From the NCBI RefSeq assembly GCF_006517535.1, contig NZ_VHQH01000040.1:62001-126000 (forward strand): DNA of 64,000 nt, in the 5' to 3' direction. The notes under the pieces were generated by a model that was given only the letters and a program-made list of their open reading frames with translations, was not told the DNA's origin and searched no databases. Source of the DNA: Schumannella sp. 10F1B-5-1 (lineage in GTDB: Bacteria > Actinomycetota > Actinomycetes > Actinomycetales > Microbacteriaceae). How positions within the stretch are numbered: position 1 is the first letter of the stretch; every line of letters begins with the position of its first letter. The translations under genes and the position numbers were made by a program. Positions 7,449-60,161 of this stretch are shown piece after piece.

Positions 7449-7455
7449 GCGGCGA

Positions 7456-7654
7456 GTGGCCACGAATGCACGCGACATGCCGCAGCAGGCGAGCATTTGT
7501 GGCCACACTCGGATCGTCCGTCGTTCGGGGTGGCCAGAAATGCACGCGACACGCTGCGCGGAGCGAGCGTTCGTGGCCACTCTCGGAACGCCGGTCGTGC
7601 GGGCTGGTCAGAAACGCGCGCGACATGCCGCCGCGGGCGAGCGTTCGTGGCCAC
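7456..7654. repeat. Family A: three tandem 51-bp hairpin elements on a 74-bp period
   Basis: Three copies of a palindromic unit lie at 7456-7506, 7530-7580 and 7604-7654. The starts are exactly 74 bases apart. Copy 1 has 14-base arms GTGGCCACGAATGC and GCATTTGTGGCCAC with one mismatch. Copies 2 and 3 keep the same right arm (GCGTTCGTGGCCAC) with drifted left arms. The loop (ACGCGACATGCCGC) is also conserved. The 23-base linkers CTCGGA..CG..CGTTCGGG are similar too. Together with the direct repeat this fills the 314 bases between TetR and the convergent lipoprotein gene. I see no gene in it. Confidence 0.9.
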
Positions 7655-7705
7655 CCTCGAACGCCCGGGTCGGCGCGGCTAAGCGGGCTCGGGACCGCCG
7701 GGCTC

Positions 7706-24730: not shown

Positions 24731-25764
24731 CCGTCCTTCTTGGGCGCGCGGCCCGGTTTGGCGGGGGTGCCGCTCGCGCCGGTGGCGGCCGTGCCGGCCT
24801 GCGTCGGCAGCGGCGCCGTCTTCGGAGGGTTCGCCCCGCGGATGCTCGCCGCGCCCTCGAGCCCCGACAGCGTGATCGCGTTGAGGGCCGGCGTGCGCAC
24901 CTCGAGGCTGTCGAGGGTCTGCTTGATGCGCCCGCGCAGCTCGCGCGCCACGTCGTCCTTCGATCCGGGCCGGGTCTTCGCGACGAGGCGCACCACGACG
25001 GCCTCCGACGAGATCGACTCGATGCCCCAGATCTCGGGCTTCTCGAGGAACAGGCGCTTCCATTTCGGCTCCTGCTGCATCCTCACCGCCGTGTCGAGCA
25101 GCGCCTCCTGCACGACCGGCACGTCCGCCTCATAGGGGATCGCCAGGTCGAGGATCACGCGCGACCAGCCCTGCGAGACGTTGCCGACGCGCAGGATCTC
25201 GCCGTTGCGCACGTACCAGAGCATCCCGTTTACGTCGCGGATCTGGGTGACGCGGATGCCGACCGCCTCGACGACGCCGGTCGCGGGCCCGAGGTCGACG
25301 ACATCCCCGACGCCGAGCTGGTCTTCGATGACCATGAACAGGCCGTTCAGCACGTCTTTCACGATGTTCTGCGCGCCGAAGCCGAGGCCGGCGCCGAGCG
25401 CGGCCGTGATGAGCGAGAACGCGGCCGTCGCGTTCGAGTTGAGCTGGTTGACGATGAGGATCGCGGCGACGATCACGATCGCCGCCGTGACGACGTTGTT
25501 GAGCACCGAGCCGATCGCGCGCGTGCGCTGCACGGTGCGCACCGCCGCGAGCGGGGAGGCTGCGATCCCGAGGGCGGCCGTGTCGTCGACCTTCTGCTTC
25601 TTCTTGACGCCGCTGACGATCTGGTTGACGACCCGGCGGATGATGAACGTCGCGATCACGCGCAGCAGCACCGCCACCACGATGATGATGACGATCTGCA
25701 GCGGGTCGCCCAGCAGGAAAGCCCACACGGAGGGCCAGAACGTGGCCCAGTCGATCGGATCCAT
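24727..25764 (-). CDS. Small-conductance mechanosensitive channel (MscS family)
   Basis: A 345-residue MscS channel that releases solutes under hypo-osmotic shock. Two N-terminal membrane segments (IVIIIVVAVLLRVIATFIIR and ISLVLNNVV.AIVIVAAILIV region) precede the pore helix and the conserved SLITAALGAGLGFGAQNIVK (family: A.G..G.A.gfg.QN). The beta domain has IEDQLGVGDVVDLGPATGVV and GMLWYVRNGEILRVGN. The C-terminus is a 45-residue Pro/Ala tail ending in KPGRAPKKDG, longer than in E. coli MscS. It precedes the globin gene with a four-base overlap. Confidence 0.92.
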   Translation of the reverse strand: MDPIDWATFWPSVWAFLLGDPLQIVIIIVVAVLLRVIATFIIRRVVNQIVSGVKKKQKVDDTAALGIAASPLAAVRTVQRTRAIGSVLNNVVTAAIVIVAAILIVNQLNSNATAAFSLITAALGAGLGFGAQNIVKDVLNGLFMVIEDQLGVGDVVDLGPATGVVEAVGIRVTQIRDVNGMLWYVRNGEILRVGNVSQGWSRVILDLAIPYEADVPVVQEALLDTAVRMQQEPKWKRLFLEKPEIWGIESISSEAVVVRLVAKTRPGSKDDVARELRGRIKQTLDSLEVRTPALNAITLSGLEGAASIRGANPPKTAPLPTQAGTAATGASGTPAKPGRAPKKDG

Positions 25765-25860
25765 GATCCGCCCAGGCTAACGACCCCCGCCTGCGCGCCG
25801 CCCGACCGCCGCCCCGGCCCGCGCCCTGCGCGAGCCCGCCGTGCGCCGTCCGCCGTCCGC

Positions 25861-25923
25861 CGTTTCGGATGAGGGGTGTCCTCAAGCCGAGATGAGGCCG
25901 AGATGCTGTCCCCATCCGAAACG
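25861..25923. repeat. Family B hairpin element, copy 1
   Basis: A 63-base element bounded by CGTTTCGGATG and its exact complement CATCCGAAACG. The interior (GGGGTGTCCTCAAGCCGAGA) is not conserved with the distant copy, but its 3' part GATGCTGTCCCCATCCG is nearly the same as in copy 2. It lies 97 bases after the start of the divergent MscS gene. Confidence 0.85.
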
Positions 25924-25950
25924 CCGCACCGGTCGGGCCACATGTCAGGC

Positions 25951-26011
25951 GATTCGGATGGAGGGTGACCGCAGGGCGCCATGACGGCTGGATGCTGTTC
26001 CCATCCGAAAC
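25951..26011. repeat. Family B hairpin element, copy 2
   Basis: A 61-base element from GATTCGGATGG to CCATCCGAAAC, with one mismatch in the arms. It is 27 bases from copy 1 in the same orientation. The two share GATGCTGT.CCCATCCGAAAC and the flank ..GCACCGG, as if duplicated together. It ends 116 bases before the DUF559 gene. Confidence 0.85.
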
Positions 26012-26127
26012 GATGCACCGGAAAGGCGGCGGCCAGCTCTCCTCCACCGCGTGCTCGACCGGAGCACGCTCCACAGATCCGCCTCCCGCCGCGCCGCCGA
26101 CGTGGGGATCCCGCCAAGGTGACGGGC

Positions 26128-26970
26128 ATGACGGCGCTGCACACAACCTCGACCCTGCGCTCGCGGGGGATGACGGCACGTCAGATCCGCAGCGCGGTCG
26201 ACATCGGCATGCTTCGGCGGCTCCGCGTCGGGCAGTATGCGAGCGGTCCGCACGACGAGCCGCTCGAGGCGGCGATCGCGTTCGGCGCGACGCTGACCTG
26301 CGCGTCCGCACTGCAGCGTAAGGGCGTCTGGGTCCTCGAGCGGACCGAGCACCTACGGCTCGACCAGAGCGGGCATCAGTCCCGCGGTGCGCTCCGGGGT
26401 GCGCGGCGCGTGCACTGGGGACAGGGGACGTCGCTCGACGGCGTCGACGATGTCGCCACCGCGCTGCTGTGCGCGCAGCGGTGCATGGGGCGAGAAGCGC
26501 TGCTGTGCTCGATCGACTCCGCCCTGCATCAGCGTCGGATCACCCGATCGCACTTGGGGTTCCTCAGCGGAACATCGGAGGGGCGGTGGGCGCTGCGGAG
26601 CAGCGACGCCCGGAGCGAATCTGGTCTCGAGACGCTGCCGCGTGTGCGCCTTCGGCGGCTCGGCATCCGCGTCCGCCCGCAGGTCCCGTTTCCTGGCGTC
26701 GGCCGAGTCGATCTCCTGATCGGCGATCGACTCGTCCTGGAGCTCGATGGAGACGAGTGGCATTCGACTCCGGAATCGCGGGAATCTGATCGCCGCCGGG
26801 ATGCGGCGCTGATCGCGATGGGCTGTCTCCCTCTGCGTGCCGGGTTCACCCGAGTCGTCCACCACTGGCCGGCGCTGGAGCGCCAGGTCCTCGAGATCGT
26901 GCGTCGCGACGAGCATCACTGGCACGGCCGGCGCCGGCGCGAGGCGCTCGACGTACCCGGTTTCGGATGA
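26128..26970 (+). CDS. DUF559/Vsr-like PD-(D/E)XK endonuclease-domain protein
   Basis: A 280-residue protein. The N-terminal 120 residues (MTARQIRSAVDIGMLRRLRV, then VGQYA and ATLTCASALQRKGVW) match the winged-helix AbiEi-like domain often fused to DUF559. The C-terminal nuclease-like domain has SESGLETLPRVRLRRLGIRV, VDLLIGDRLVLELDGDEWHS and SRESDRRRDAALIAMGCLPL. Candidate catalytic residues are D195, E206, D208 and H212, then D221/R222. This is the Vsr/DUF559 pattern. The DNA or RNA target is unknown. Its stop codon lies in the left arm of a family B repeat, and two more copies lie upstream, so gene and repeats may be linked. ATG 26128 is chosen over a GTG nine bases earlier. Confidence 0.8.
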   Translation: MTALHTTSTLRSRGMTARQIRSAVDIGMLRRLRVGQYASGPHDEPLEAAIAFGATLTCASALQRKGVWVLERTEHLRLDQSGHQSRGALRGARRVHWGQGTSLDGVDDVATALLCAQRCMGREALLCSIDSALHQRRITRSHLGFLSGTSEGRWALRSSDARSESGLETLPRVRLRRLGIRVRPQVPFPGVGRVDLLIGDRLVLELDGDEWHSTPESRESDRRRDAALIAMGCLPLRAGFTRVVHHWPALERQVLEIVRRDEHHWHGRRRREALDVPGFG

Positions 26971-27020
26971 CAGCCGCGCTCGAGCTCTCCTACGGCTTCG
27001 AGAACGCTCCCATCCGAAAC
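26960..27020. repeat. Family B hairpin element, copy 3 (contains DUF559 stop codon)
   Basis: A 61-base element between GTTTCGGATG and CATCCGAAAC, perfect 10-base arms. The DUF559 protein ends PGFG, coded by the left arm, and the TGA falls on its last bases. The insertion therefore supplied the present stop, or the gene and the element evolved together. Confidence 0.85.
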
Positions 27021-27134
27021 GAGGGACGAGCACGATGGGCGACCACGCCGCGGCGAGCAGAGCGCCGGAACGGCGGAGGGGCGCCGGCCGTGGCCGACGC
27101 CCCTCCGGGACGGGACGGGTGGCGCGGGCGCCGC

Positions 27135-27175
27135 GGACCGCGCGGGGCGCGCCGGGGACCGCGCGAGGCGCGCCG
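27135..27175. repeat. Two-copy 21-bp GC repeat beside pepN
   Basis: GGACCGCGCGGGGCGCGCCG and GGACCGCGCGAGGCGCGCCG are adjacent at a 21-base period, 24 bases beyond the pepN stop. The 178-base gap between family B copy 3 and pepN is otherwise made of extremely GC-rich CGCGCC runs and holds no gene that I can support. Confidence 0.65.
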
Positions 27176-27198
27176 AGCGCGCCGGCGCGCCCCGCGGC

Positions 27199-29742
27199 TC
27201 AGGCCGCGTCGACCGCCTGCGCGGCCAGGGCGCGCTCGACGCCCGCCAGGTTCTCCTGCACGAGGCGACGCAGCGCCGGGATGTCGGGGTGCGCATCCAG
27301 CCAGGCCTGCGTCTGGTCGACGAGGGCCTGCGAGGCGAGCGCGCTCGGGTAGAACCACACCACGATGTACTCGGCGATCTTGTAGCTGCGGCTCTTCCAA
27401 ATCGACTCGAGTGCGTCGAAGTAGGGCGCGACGAGCGGCTCGAGCACGGCCGGGTCGTTGACGTGCTGGTAGCCCATGCCGAGCATCCGCAGGATCGCGT
27501 TGGGGATCTGCTCATCGGTCAGGGCCCGGTCGAGCGCGGCCTTCTTGCCCTCGGCGCTCGGCACAGTGCCGCGCGCGCGGGCCGCGGCCTGCTGGCCGTT
27601 CGAGGTGTTGTCGCGCTCCTCGGCGGTCGCGATCTGGGCCTCGCCGGCGACGCCCGTGAGCACGAGGCCCTCGAGCAGCTCCCACTCGAGGTCGGTGTCG
27701 ATGTCGAGACCGTCGAGGCGGGTCGTGCCGTTCTGCAGCGCGCGCAGCACCTCGGCGTGCGCCGGGGTCGAGGCGACGTTCGCGAAGAACTTCACGAACT
27801 GGAACTGCGCGTCCGAGCCGGGCTCGGCGCCCTGCGCGAGCGTCCACAGCGTGTCGCCGACCTCGGCGATCGCGGCGTCGCGCGATGCGGGCGCGACGTA
27901 GCTGCGGGCGACCTGCGCCAGCTGCGTGAGGCTCAGGCGGATGGTCGTCGACTCGGTCTCGGTCGCGATGTTGTCGAGCACGAGGCGGATGTAGTCGCTC
28001 GGCTTGGCCTCGCCGTCGCGGGTCGCATCCCACACGGCGCCCCAGACGATCGCGCGGGCCAGCGGTTCCTCGATGTGCTTGAGGTGGGCGATCGCGGTGG
28101 CGAGCGACACGTCGTCGAGACGGATCTTCGCGTAGGCGAGGTCGTCGTCGTTGAGCAGGATCAGCTCGGGGCGCGCGAGTCCGACCAGCTCGGGCACCTC
28201 GGTCGAGACGCCGTCGATGTCGAGCTCGTGGCGGTGGGTGCGCACGAGCTTGCCGCCCTGCAGAGAGTAGAAGCCGACGGCCAGACGGTGCGGGCGGATC
28301 GTCGGGTAGTCGGGATGCGCGCTCTGCTCGATCGCGAAGCTCGCGATGGTGCCGTCGTCGGCGACCGACAGGGCCGGGCGCAGGGTGTTGACGCCCGCGG
28401 TCTCGAGCCACTTCGCGCCCCAGCCGTCGAGCGAGCGGCCGCTGGCGGCCTCGAGCTCGACGAGCAGGTCGCGCAGCTCGGTGTTGCCGAACTCGTGCTT
28501 CTGGAAGTACTGCCCGACGCCGGTGAAGAACGCGTCGATGCCGACCCAGGCGGCGAGCTGCTTCAGCACCGATCCGCCCTTGGCGTAGGTGATGCCGTCG
28601 AAGTTGACCTGCACCGCCTCGAGGTCGTCGATCGTGGCGACGATCGGGTGGGTCGAGGGCAGCTGGTCCTGCTTGTAGGCCCAGCTCTTCTCCATGGCCT
28701 GGAAGGTCGTCCACGCCTCGGTCCACTCGGTGGCCTCGGCGGTGGCGATGGTGGATGCCCACTCGGCGAACGACTCGTTCAGCCAGAGGTCGTTCCACCA
28801 CTTCATGGTCACGAGGTCGCCGAACCACATGTGGGCGAGCTCGTGCAGGATCGTGACGACGCGGCGCTCCTTGATCGCGTCGGTCACCTTCGAGCGGAAG
28901 ACGTAGGTCTCGGTGAAGGTGACGGCACCCGCGTTCTCCATGGCGCCCGCGTTGAACTCGGGCACGAAGAGCTGGTCGTACTTCGCGAAGGGGTACGGGT
29001 AGCCGAACTTCTCCTCGTAGTAGGCGAAGCCCTGGCGGGTCTTCTCGAAGATGTAGTCGGCATCCAGGTACTGGAACAGCGACTTGCGCGCGAACACGCC
29101 GAGCGGGATGGTGCGGCCGCTGGCGCTGGTCAGCTCGCTGTGCACGGCCTGGTACGGCCCGGCGATGAGCGCGGTGATGTAGCTCGAGATGCGCGGGGTC
29201 GGCTCGAAGTGCCAGGTCGCGCGGCCCTCGCCCGCGAACACCGGCTCGGGGGTGGGGGAGTTGCTGACGACGGCCCAGTTGGCGGGCGCCGTGACGTGGA
29301 AGGTGAACGCGGCCTTGAGGTCGGGCTGCTCGAACACGGCGTACATGCGCCGGCTGTCGGGCACCTCGAACTGCGAGTAGAGGTACACCTCGCCGTCGAC
29401 GGGGTCGACGAAGCGGTGCAGGCCCTCGCCGGTGTTGGTGTAGATCGCGTCGGCGTCGACGACGAGCTCGTTGTGCTCCTGCAGGTCGGTCAGCTGGATG
29501 CGCACGCCGTCGCTGACCGCCGCGGGGTCGAGCGCCGTGCCGTTGAGCGTGACCGCGTGCACGGTGCGGGTGATGGCGTCGATGAACGTCTCGGTCGCCC
29601 CGCGAGCCGTGAAGCGCACCACGGTGGTGCTGCGGAAGGTCTCGGCGCCGGTCGTGAGGTCGAGCGTGACGTCGTAGCTCTCGACGTCGACGATGGCCTT
29701 CCGGTCGCGGGCTTCGAGGCGGGTGAGGTTCTCTCCAGGCAC
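27199..29742 (-). CDS. pepN: Aminopeptidase N (M1 family)
   Basis: An 847-residue zinc aminopeptidase that removes N-terminal residues from peptides in the cytosol. The substrate-recognition motif GAMEN is preserved (NAGAMENAGAVTF). The zinc motif is HELAHMWFGDLVTMKWWNDL, with the second Glu ligand 19 residues on in NESFAEW. The long C-terminal ERAP1-like helical domain is complete. GTG at 29742 is chosen because homologues start at the following PGENLTR and an AAGGGAGC ribosome binding site precedes it. An upstream ATG would add 14 unlike residues. The length fits actinobacterial PepN. Confidence 0.95.
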   Translation of the reverse strand: MPGENLTRLEARDRKAIVDVESYDVTLDLTTGAETFRSTTVVRFTARGATETFIDAITRTVHAVTLNGTALDPAAVSDGVRIQLTDLQEHNELVVDADAIYTNTGEGLHRFVDPVDGEVYLYSQFEVPDSRRMYAVFEQPDLKAAFTFHVTAPANWAVVSNSPTPEPVFAGEGRATWHFEPTPRISSYITALIAGPYQAVHSELTSASGRTIPLGVFARKSLFQYLDADYIFEKTRQGFAYYEEKFGYPYPFAKYDQLFVPEFNAGAMENAGAVTFTETYVFRSKVTDAIKERRVVTILHELAHMWFGDLVTMKWWNDLWLNESFAEWASTIATAEATEWTEAWTTFQAMEKSWAYKQDQLPSTHPIVATIDDLEAVQVNFDGITYAKGGSVLKQLAAWVGIDAFFTGVGQYFQKHEFGNTELRDLLVELEAASGRSLDGWGAKWLETAGVNTLRPALSVADDGTIASFAIEQSAHPDYPTIRPHRLAVGFYSLQGGKLVRTHRHELDIDGVSTEVPELVGLARPELILLNDDDLAYAKIRLDDVSLATAIAHLKHIEEPLARAIVWGAVWDATRDGEAKPSDYIRLVLDNIATETESTTIRLSLTQLAQVARSYVAPASRDAAIAEVGDTLWTLAQGAEPGSDAQFQFVKFFANVASTPAHAEVLRALQNGTTRLDGLDIDTDLEWELLEGLVLTGVAGEAQIATAEERDNTSNGQQAAARARGTVPSAEGKKAALDRALTDEQIPNAILRMLGMGYQHVNDPAVLEPLVAPYFDALESIWKSRSYKIAEYIVVWFYPSALASQALVDQTQAWLDAHPDIPALRRLVQENLAGVERALAAQAVDAA

Positions 29743-38298: not shown

Positions 38299-38336
38299 GC
38301 TCCGATCCTCGCACCCGCATCCGCGCGACCCCTTTT

Positions 38337-38404
38337 CGCAATTCAGCACGAATCGCGCCCGATGGCCGGCGCGGGGCGTCGGAGGCGATTCGTGCTGAAT
38401 TGCG
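38337..38404. repeat. Family C hairpin element, copy 1
   Basis: A 68-base element with perfect 20-base arms, CGCAATTCAGCACGAATCGC and its complement. The interior (GCCGGCGCGGGGCGTCGGAG) is GC-rich. It lies between the hypothetical gene at 37846 and the VOC gene at 38456, in the divergent promoter space of both. Two more copies are found 21.5 kb away. Confidence 0.9.
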
Positions 38405-38455
38405 TTCGGCATCCCGGGGATGGAGCGGCGCGGTGCGGATGTGTACGGTGTTCAC

Positions 38456-42134: not shown

Positions 42135-42195
42135 GTTTCGGATGAGGAGAGGTCGCGAGCCGAGACAGGCCTCGGACGTGCGTCTCATCCGCAAC
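42135..42195. repeat. Family B hairpin element, copy 4
   Basis: A 61-base element between GTTTCGGATGAG and CTCATCCGCAAC, 12-base arms with one mismatch. It shares the ends but not the interior of the copies near 26 kb, 15 kb away. It is 78 bases upstream of the minus-strand small gene and 196 bases before tRNA-Pro. Confidence 0.85.
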
Positions 42196-59890: not shown

Positions 59891-59960
59891 ACGCAATTCA
59901 GCACGGATGCGCGCTGGCGCCCCGCGCGGGGCGTCGCGGTCGATTCGTGCTGAGTTGCGT
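59891..59960. repeat. Family C hairpin element, copy 2
   Basis: A 70-base element starting 6 bases after the LLM oxidoreductase stop. Arms ACGCAATTCAGCACGGAT.. and ..ATTCGTGCTGAGTTGCGT pair with two mismatches. The interior CTGGCGCCCCGCGCGGGGCG folds on its own. Confidence 0.88.
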
Positions 59961-59982
59961 CGGCACTGTGGGGTGGTGGGTG

Positions 59983-60052
59983 ACGCAATTCAGCACGGAT
60001 TCGCTGTGGCGCCCCGTGCGGGCCCCACGGCCGAATCCGTGCTGAATTGCGT
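59983..60052. repeat. Family C hairpin element, copy 3
   Basis: A 70-base element 22 bases after copy 2, in the same orientation. Its arms are perfect over 21 bases (ACGCAATTCAGCACGGATTC.. with its complement). The interior TGTGGCGCCCCGTGCGGGCC is related to copy 2. The exact arms suggest recent or maintained copying. Confidence 0.9.
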
Positions 60053-60080
60053 CACGGCCGCGGAAGACGCGAGCGGTCGG

Positions 60081-60150
60081 CGGGCGGCCCGGCGCGGGCG
60101 GCCCGGTGCGAGCGGCCCGGTGCGAGCGGCCCGGTGCGGGCGGCCCGGCG
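60081..60150. repeat. Five-copy 14-bp minisatellite
   Basis: Five adjacent copies of CGGGCGGCCCGGCG/CGAGCGGCCCGGTG at 60081, 60095, 60109, 60123 and 60137. Variation is limited to three positions. It ends 11 bases before the dcp stop codon. It could serve as a terminator or be a variable-number locus. Confidence 0.85.
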
Positions 60151-60161
60151 CGGGCCCGGGC

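What the first reader, a model, noticed from the sequence alone, without database searches (positions are those of the whole stretch)
25861..27020. Family B hairpin repeats bracket a DUF559 nuclease-like gene; one holds its stop codon
Seen: three elements with TTTCGGATG/CATCCGAAA ends (25861-25923, 25951-26011, 26960-27020) lie on both sides of a 280-residue gene with a Vsr/DUF559 PD-(D/E)XK-like domain, and the gene's TGA is in the left arm of the third. A fourth copy is at 42135. Known: REP/REPIN palindromes in other bacteria depend on one linked nuclease-like enzyme (RAYT transposases), but that enzyme is a Y1 tyrosine type. Inference: a winged-helix DUF559 protein might recognise or spread these palindromes, a different enzyme class. 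The association could also be chance in a genome rich in such elements.
Basis: partly seen in the sequence, partly recalled or inferred. Interest (0 to 1): 0.78.

Follow-up and report, generated by a model that had tools for sequence, protein, structure and literature searches.

The report
Nuclease genes bracketed by matching repeats
In the actinobacterial family Microbacteriaceae and some of its relatives, many DUF559 nuclease genes carry on both sides their own private repeat, two mirrored arms a fixed distance apart, which is also scattered between other genes and changes together with the nuclease, so an enzyme unlike the known REP transposases seems to be paired with its own family of DNA repeats.

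Summary
The genome has six AbiEi-like winged-helix + DUF559 (Vsr/MTES_1575-type) nuclease genes, and all six are bracketed by six different inverted-repeat families. Across the family, 57 of 138 such genes carry matching palindromes up- and downstream (0.37 expected by cross-locus pairing; 1 of 520 pseudo-genes in other DNA), and 38 of 80 in a set from named organisms. The two copies flanking one gene have identical length in 74 of 86 genes that share an exact arm. Palindrome similarity follows nuclease identity above about 50%. At the window's MscS-PepN locus, two relatives have PepN 93-94% identical but a nuclease only 51-52% identical and other palindromes. One family keeps sites at orthologous positions in up to four species, with species-specific arms. 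The nuclease domain resembles the homing endonuclease I-Bth0305I. I infer a REP/RAYT-like enzyme-repeat pairing built on an unrelated nuclease, probably recognising duplex inverted half-sites. Cutting, spreading and benefit are untested; 81 of 138 genes were not bracketed under my criteria.

The parts
25862..25922 (.). family-B element 1, 61 nt, upstream of the nuclease gene
25951..26011 (.). family-B element 2, 61 nt, upstream
26128..26970 (+). AbiEi-like winged-helix + DUF559/MTES_1575 nuclease gene, 280 aa; start codon is my choice
26593..26865 (+). Vsr/EDxHD-like nuclease domain (DUF559 match, residues 156-246; E168, D195, E205, D221 invariant in 59 sequences)
26960..27020 (.). family-B element 3, 61 nt, downstream; its left arm holds the stop codon TGA (26968-26970)
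42135..42195 (.). family-B element 4, dispersed copy, 61 nt
7452..7677 (.). three copies (one full element by the arm search) of the GGTGGCCACGAATGC palindrome family; its cognate nuclease gene is elsewhere (G000:C13:314600-315499)
38336..38405 (.). orphan palindrome family CGCAATTCAGCACG (70 nt), cognate nuclease not found
59891..60052 (.). two more copies of the CGCAATTCAGCACG family

Best explanation
These are enzyme-repeat pairs. Each AbiEi-like winged-helix/EDxHD-type nuclease recognises its own inverted-repeat element, two mirrored arms of roughly 9-20 bp held at a fixed spacing. The element flanks the nuclease gene on both sides and is scattered mostly in intergenic DNA. SHOWN: the bracketing, a private arm sequence per gene lineage, length fixed nearly to the nucleotide, mostly extragenic placement, joint change of enzyme and arms, and species-specific arms at orthologous sites. 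INFERRED: the protein binds the element as duplex DNA, probably as a dimer with one subunit per arm, as reported for I-Bth0305I on a target of nearly 60 bp. INFERRED, less sure: nicking or cutting at the elements, followed by repair from other copies, keeps the arms matched to the enzyme and occasionally seeds new sites, so that the system works like REP/RAYT with a different chemistry.
For: 6 of 6 nuclease genes of this genome are bracketed, each by its own family, whereas three other MTES_1575 hits (L014, L018, L019) are not. 57 of 138 genes against 0.37 expected, and 1 of 520 pseudo-genes, at score 15 (at score 12: 60 of 138, 2.81 expected, 5 of 520); 38 of 80 in the named set, about 1.4 expected. 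Up and down copies have equal length in 74 of 86 genes, against 9.7% within 1 nt when partners are shuffled. Dispersed copies have one length per family: 61 nt (8 of 8), 81 (4 of 4), 59 (5 of 5), 70 (5 of 5). Arm similarity rises from medians of 7.2-8.0 below 45% protein identity to 24 at 60-80% (17 pairs), Mantel r 0.333, 0 of 2000 permutations. Locus difference at MscS-PepN. Orthologous sites with species-specific arms. 7 of 36 dispersed copies lie in predicted coding DNA against 30 expected. Invariant candidate active-site residues. Fold match to I-Bth0305I and Vsr.
Against: 81 of 138 genes were not bracketed under my criteria; the two relatives at the window's own locus, whose upstream copies look degraded by eye, failed the earlier form of the test. 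No binding or cutting was tested. No target-site duplication or clear recent copying was seen in the family examined. Only 10 of 29 genes of the phylum sample share exact arms on both sides, none of the five from other classes. G001 carries two strict family-B copies without a close cognate. Two orphan families have no nuclease found, and the CAACTCAGGAGAT family has no full copy in the 984-kb sample. The overall rank correlation of protein and arm similarity is weak (Spearman 0.05). The Foldseek matches are weak (none at E 0.001 or better). One of 26 relatives (L104) has Q at the E205 position. Whether the genome also carries a RAYT was not searched.
Confidence: 0.62

Rival explanations
1. 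REPIN-like mobile palindromes: the nuclease acts as a transposase and copies whole elements, perhaps as hairpins, to new intergenic sites. (Odds here are not exclusive of each other.)
For: Dispersed, mostly extragenic copies; strict family-B elements are in only 2 of 249 family genomes, so the family arose or spread recently; tandem and near-identical copies exist (L003, C319:190129 and 190315); empty sites in G004 for two sites of the GGAAACTCAGG family.
Against: Among 46 elements of the GGAAACTCAGG family, middles at different sites are not clearly related: apart from one orthologous pair (score 39) the best pairs score 24 and 20 against a shuffle maximum of 19; many sites are orthologous across species; a fixed length with an unpaired middle is not needed for a hairpin.
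Confidence: 0.3
2. Homing cassette: palindrome-gene-palindrome is a mobile unit that swaps or homes into existing palindromes, so lone palindromes are vacant landing sites.
For: Nuclease domain like homing endonucleases (PADLOC homing-endonuclease model in 4 of 26); the nuclease and palindromes at one locus differ between species while PepN stays 93-94% identical; G003 has no nuclease at the MscS-PepN junction.
Against: No case was seen of the same cassette at two different palindromes, though this was not searched for systematically; G000, G001 and G002 keep a nuclease at the same locus, which could equally be fast divergence in place.
Confidence: 0.2
3. Host-useful site network: the elements are binding sites around the gene, for example for chromosome organisation or repair, and the nuclease has been recruited as a site-specific protein.
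For: GGAAACTCAGG family: of 41 strict copies in four genomes, 8 of 10, 8 of 9, 7 of 8 and 7 of 14 lie within about 21 kb of the gene, and 14 of 14 in G004 lie between -111 and +31 kb; sites are conserved over species and the arm core is exact in 85 of 92 arms (copies with more than 3 mismatches in an arm were not collected).
Against: Family B is spread over many contigs; arms 600 nt or more from the gene but inside the roughly 6.9-kb locus occur in 3 of 36 named loci, no more than the control; candidate active-site residues are kept.
Confidence: 0.2
4. Autoregulation: the palindromes are operators or terminators of the nuclease gene, since AbiEi antitoxins bind inverted repeats at their own promoter (recalled, not from a call).
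For: AbiEi similarity in relatives; an upstream copy typically beginning 100-200 nt before the start and a downstream copy near the stop.
Against: It does not explain dispersed copies in other intergenic regions, the matching downstream copy, or family-specific spacing.
Confidence: 0.12
5. Chance association in a repeat-rich genome.
For: None found for the bracketing; some single-sided palindromes near these genes may be chance.
Against:: observed far above cross-locus and other-DNA controls.
Confidence: 0.01

Closest known systems
REP/REPIN palindromes with RAYT (Y1 HUH tyrosine transposase)
   Same: Enzyme gene flanked by its own palindromes; dispersed extragenic copies; co-evolution; orthologous enzyme genes flanked by different palindrome classes; fast enzyme evolution relative to neighbours (passages of PMC2817692, and PMC3686654).
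   Different: Enzyme matches Vsr/DUF559-type nuclease models, not HUH-Tyr; no GTAG-type head was noticed in my families (not searched for); elements span 32-110 nt between shared arms with near-exact spacing per family; about 8-17 copies where the GGAAACTCAGG family was counted, against 37-427 perfect REP copies per genome in the passage of PMC2817692; one family is clustered round its gene.
EDxHD homing endonucleases (I-Bth0305I) and Vsr
   Same: Nuclease-domain fold (I-Bth0305I; Vsr); I-Bth0305I is said to dimerise on a target of nearly 60 bp (passage of PMC3943268), close to the common 55-61 nt elements.
   Different: No intron was looked for or noticed here; relatives have an AbiEi-like N-terminus; matching sites flank the gene and are repeated in the genome.
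AbiEi antitoxins (type IV toxin-antitoxin)
   Same: N-terminal similarity in relatives.
   Different: The C-terminal half is a nuclease; the neighbours were not scanned for an AbiEii toxin, so its absence is not shown.
IS200/IS605 transposons and MITEs
   Same: Palindromes at or near the ends and short non-autonomous copies (general knowledge).
   Different: No HUH transposase model among the Pfam hits of the protein or its relatives; no target-site duplication noticed.

Membership tests
REP/RAYT | enzyme gene flanked by two cognate palindromes | tested here: met
   (6 of 6 in this genome; 57 of 138 in the family and 38 of 80 in the named set under my criteria)
REP/RAYT | enzyme is a Y1 HUH tyrosine transposase | tested here: not met
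   Pfam hits are MTES_1575, DUF559 and AbiEi models only; best nuclease fold match is I-Bth0305I
REP/RAYT | conserved terminal tetranucleotide (GTAG/GTGG type) | tested here: inconclusive
   no common head seen by eye among listed arms; no dedicated motif search was run
REP/RAYT | palindrome abundance depends on the cognate enzyme gene | tested here: inconclusive
   GGAAACTCAGG family: copies in the 4 genus genomes with the gene, 0 in G003, whose nearest protein is under 47% identical; family B: 2 copies in G001 without a close cognate
REP/RAYT | enzyme moves or copies the palindromes | not testable with these tools
   needs experiments or dense strain series
EDxHD homing endonuclease | EDxHD/Vsr-like catalytic fold | tested here: met
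   3r3p first by Foldseek for the window model, E 9e-3, TM on target 0.75; TM 0.78 at rank 3 for the L254 model, behind two mitoribosomal entries with low TM; profile match to 3hrl E 2.7e-4 and 3r3p E 0.095. All weak by E-value
EDxHD homing endonuclease | drives its own gene into empty alleles | not testable with these tools
   the difference at MscS-PepN is only compatible with it
AbiE toxin-antitoxin | AbiEii nucleotidyltransferase partner gene | not tested
   neighbouring genes were not scanned with family models
DUF559 / MTES_1575 family | passes the curated Pfam cut-off | tested here: not met
   window protein 30.9 bits vs 38.2 and 17.8 vs 20.6; of 26 relatives 24 and 21 match at E 0.01

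The most novel reading that the evidence does not exclude
A new class of enzyme-repeat co-evolution: a winged-helix EDxHD-type nuclease binds fixed-spacing inverted half-sites in duplex DNA and, by cutting mismatched sites and templating their repair, rewrites the arms of all its sites in place, so that enzyme specificity and a whole set of chromosomal sites change together. It would be a bacterial counterpart of PRDM9-like chases between a DNA-binding protein and its sites, convergent with REP/RAYT but without a transposase.
Probability: 0.25. Interest if true: 0.95.

Novelty: categorically new. Interest (0 to 1): 0.86.

Why it matters
REP/RAYT is the best-known example (to my knowledge) of bacterial palindromes tied to one linked enzyme, and how such repeats persist is an open question. 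A second system of this form, with an unrelated nuclease, several parallel pairs in this genome, and the nuclease present in 44 of 60 genomes sampled from the family, gives many natural replicates of enzyme and site specificity. It makes it directly testable whether linked nucleases spread, maintain or merely bind such repeats, gives a candidate role to a domain of unknown function, and offers nucleases whose long recognition sites may be read from the genome beside the gene.

Tried and rejected
Chance: rejected by the controls. Known RNA family: no Rfam match at 25700-27200 up to E 1. A simple terminator or RNA hairpin: not favoured, because of the fixed-length unpaired middle in the GGAAACTCAGG family and because both flanks carry the element. 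Middles as captured DNA: no match of 46 middles elsewhere in the DNA held (E 1e-4), apart from the G001/G002 orthologous pair and one self-palindrome. A general clustering of copies within 3 kb of the gene: not found (3 of 36). A shared inner motif ACACGCCG: in 14 of 92 loci (27 of 184 elements against 0.8 expected); not pursued. The first genome pattern had too short a spacer and found nothing. Single-protein search of genome contigs: no relatives. Strict exact-arm tests undercount (33 of 138 with 9-mers; first approximate test 45 of 138 at score 9). The test I report was changed after L026 and L153, visibly bracketed, had been missed; its nulls were computed in the same way, and the score of 15 was not fixed beforehand. 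The length comparison takes the closest pair when several copies are present, which favours equality. Orthologous sites were assigned by me; one of the five in G004 (474675) is only loosely placed by its flanks. Literature: of ten searches, five had DUF559 as a term; no listing showed a paper that links DUF559 proteins with palindromes. Listings were capped, and only held open-access papers were searched.

Full report
OBSERVATION. The four TTTCGGATG/CATCCGAAA elements exist where stated and are each 61 nt long; the TGA of the DUF559-like gene (26128-26970) lies in the left arm of the third. TTCGGATG occurs 8 times in the window against 1.48 expected. In the whole genome the arm pair occurs at 11 places, 10 of one exact length, and the reversed control pattern at none. 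The window lies in an unnamed 3.28-Mb genome.

ALL SIX NUCLEASE GENES IN THIS GENOME. Pfam MTES_1575 and DUF559 searches and a six-sequence profile find six full-length proteins of this architecture, plus one weak hit of another architecture. Each of the six is bracketed by a different palindrome family: TTTCGGATG (window), CTCAAGGAGTTGCTGTAAC, GTCGGAAACTCAGGCG, GAGTTGCCCACTTC, GGTGGCCACGAATGC and CAACTCAGGAGAT. The other MTES_1575 hits (by eye a large helicase-like protein, a zinc-ribbon-like one, and an apparently spurious one) have no such brackets.

BREADTH AND CONTROLS. The profile hits 44 of 60 family genomes at E 1e-20. I examined 138 genes (6 own, 24 from the genus, 28 and 80 from the family); further listed and unlisted matches were not fetched. 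Palindromes with 11 or more matched arm bases lie upstream of 93, downstream of 87 and on both sides of 64. Up and down palindromes align with score 15 or more in 57 of 138; pairing flanks of different loci gives 8 of 3000, i.e. 0.37 expected; 520 pseudo-genes in twenty 20-kb stretches picked at round coordinates give 1. In a phylum sample, 117 of 298 genomes have the protein at E 1e-20; 10 of 29 genes examined share exact arms on both sides, none of the five from other classes.

FIXED LENGTH. In 86 genes that share an exact arm of at least 9 nt up and down (of 247 in the three sets, duplicates included), the two copies have the same span in 74 and differ by at most 1 nt in 78; shuffled partners give 9.7% within 1 nt. 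In a 984-kb sample of the own genome, full copies have nearly one length per family: 61 nt (8 of 8), 81 (4 of 4), 59 (5 of 5), 70 (5 of 5), 77 (2 of 2), 60 (1) and 88-90 (11, of which 8 are 89); the CAACTCAGGAGAT family has no full copy there. In the GGAAACTCAGG family the 20-nt arms are nearly invariant and paired, while the 49-nt middle is neither conserved nor clearly paired. Fixed spacing without pairing points to recognition of two half-sites on duplex DNA (inference); family B, by contrast, has a partly paired inner stem. Of 36 dispersed copies, 7 overlap predicted coding DNA against 30 expected, with a crude gene predictor.

CO-VARIATION WITH THE PROTEIN. Among 95 bracketed genes, palindrome similarity is at background (medians 7.2-8.0) for pairs below 50% protein identity, 13.4 at 50-60% (n=30) and 24 at 60-80% (n=17); Mantel r 0.333, 0 of 2000 permutations; the overall Spearman is only 0.05 because most pairs lie below 45%, and the Mantel figure includes three pairs that are the same record. 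Paralogues in one genome can differ: L254 and L255 are 69% identical with different arms.

THE WINDOW LOCUS IN RELATIVES. In two congeners the MscS-PepN junction also holds a DUF559 gene. PepN is 93-94% identical to the window's, and the two congeners' nucleases are 96% identical to each other, but the window's nuclease is only 51-52% identical to them and its palindromes differ (theirs: GCGGATACTGGCGAG; by eye their upstream copies are degraded, and they failed the earlier form of my bracketing test). In L042, alignable DNA stops at 25819 on one side and resumes at 27069; inside, only 342 nt of the nuclease domain align; L048 is similar. A third congener has no nuclease there and a fourth has an unrelated ORF. 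REP/RAYT papers describe a like pattern: orthologous RAYTs with different REP classes (PMC3686654, passages) and rayt genes evolving faster than their neighbours (PMC2817692, passages). Strict family-B elements occur in 2 of 249 family genomes: 8 places in the own genome, 2 in G001, which has no nuclease closer than 51%.

A LONG-LIVED SITE SET. The GGAAACTCAGG family has 10, 9, 8 and 14 strict copies in four genus genomes (G000, G001, G002, G004) that have the cognate gene, and 0 in G003, whose nearest protein is under 47% identical. Within about 21 kb of the gene lie 8 of 10, 8 of 9, 7 of 8 and 7 of 14; all 14 in G004 lie between -111 and +31 kb. Flank alignment, assigned by me, finds eight of the own sites occupied in G001, nine in G002 and five in G004 (one loosely); two are empty in G004, and two own sites have no cognate element in G001 or G002. 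Among 46 elements the 14-nt core is exact in 85 of 92 arms (elements with more than 3 mismatches in an arm were not collected), and 44 of 46 are 85-88 nt long. The next 5 nt are species-specific: identity 0.88 within the own genome, but 0.39 between orthologous sites of G000 and G001, the same as between non-orthologous ones (0.38); G004 mostly has A[CG]TC. So arms differ in concert between species at the same sites. Middles at different sites are not clearly related (best 24 and 20 against a shuffle maximum of 19), so I see no clear recent copying of whole elements in this family.

PROTEIN. Invariant residues in 59 sequences include E168, D195, E205 and D221 of the window protein, as expected for a PD-(D/E)XK active site (the assignment is recalled); in another alignment of 26, L104 has Q at the E205 position. 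The window model is confident for about residues 111-260 only (mean pLDDT 72.9); the L254 model is confident throughout (95.7). The nuclease part matches the EDxHD homing endonuclease I-Bth0305I and Vsr by Foldseek, with weak E-values but TM 0.75-0.78 on the 3r3p target, and 3hrl by profile (E 2.7e-4). Relatives match AbiEi models (AbiEi_4 in 8 of 26; the commonest PADLOC AbiEi model in 13 of 26). I-Bth0305I is described as dimerising on a target of nearly 60 bp (PMC3943268, passages).

VERDICT. The pairing of nuclease and palindrome is solid; the mechanism is inferred. It works like REP/RAYT in arrangement and evolution but fails that family's defining enzyme feature. Ten literature searches (five with DUF559 as a term, several listings capped) showed no description of it; in the passages seen, PMC3710099 describes MTES_1575 as a Vsr-type domain in a large multidomain protein.

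Noticed in passing
window 42135-42195; L352, L354: The corresponding intergenic region holds a family-B element here, a GGATACTG/CGCCAGTATCCGC element (seen by eye) in G001 and a GTGCACGGAAGCCG element in G002: three species, three families.
   Followed up: partly
window 38336-38405, 59891-60052; L002, L005, L006: Two palindrome families (CGCAATTCAGCACG, 70 nt; CGTGCACGGAAACCGG, 77 nt) without a nuclease gene found in this genome; by eye the second shares an inner stem like CGAGCC/GGCTCG with family B although the outer arms differ.
   Followed up: partly
L003 1497-1789: Family-B elements repeated at 115-bp spacing on contig C13.
   Followed up: no
window 60080-60155: Short array of a 14-bp tandem unit GCGGGCGGCCCGGT.
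   Followed up: no
L346 (G004, MscS-PepN junction): A roughly 300-codon ORF, hydrophobic by eye, stands where the window has the nuclease.
   Followed up: no
L254, L255: Two nucleases of one Microterricola genome, 69% identical, with different palindromes: a natural specificity-swap pair.
   Followed up: no
14 of 92 bracketed loci: An inner motif ACACGCCG recurs inside palindromes (27 of 184 elements against 0.8 expected), also where outer arms differ.
   Followed up: partly
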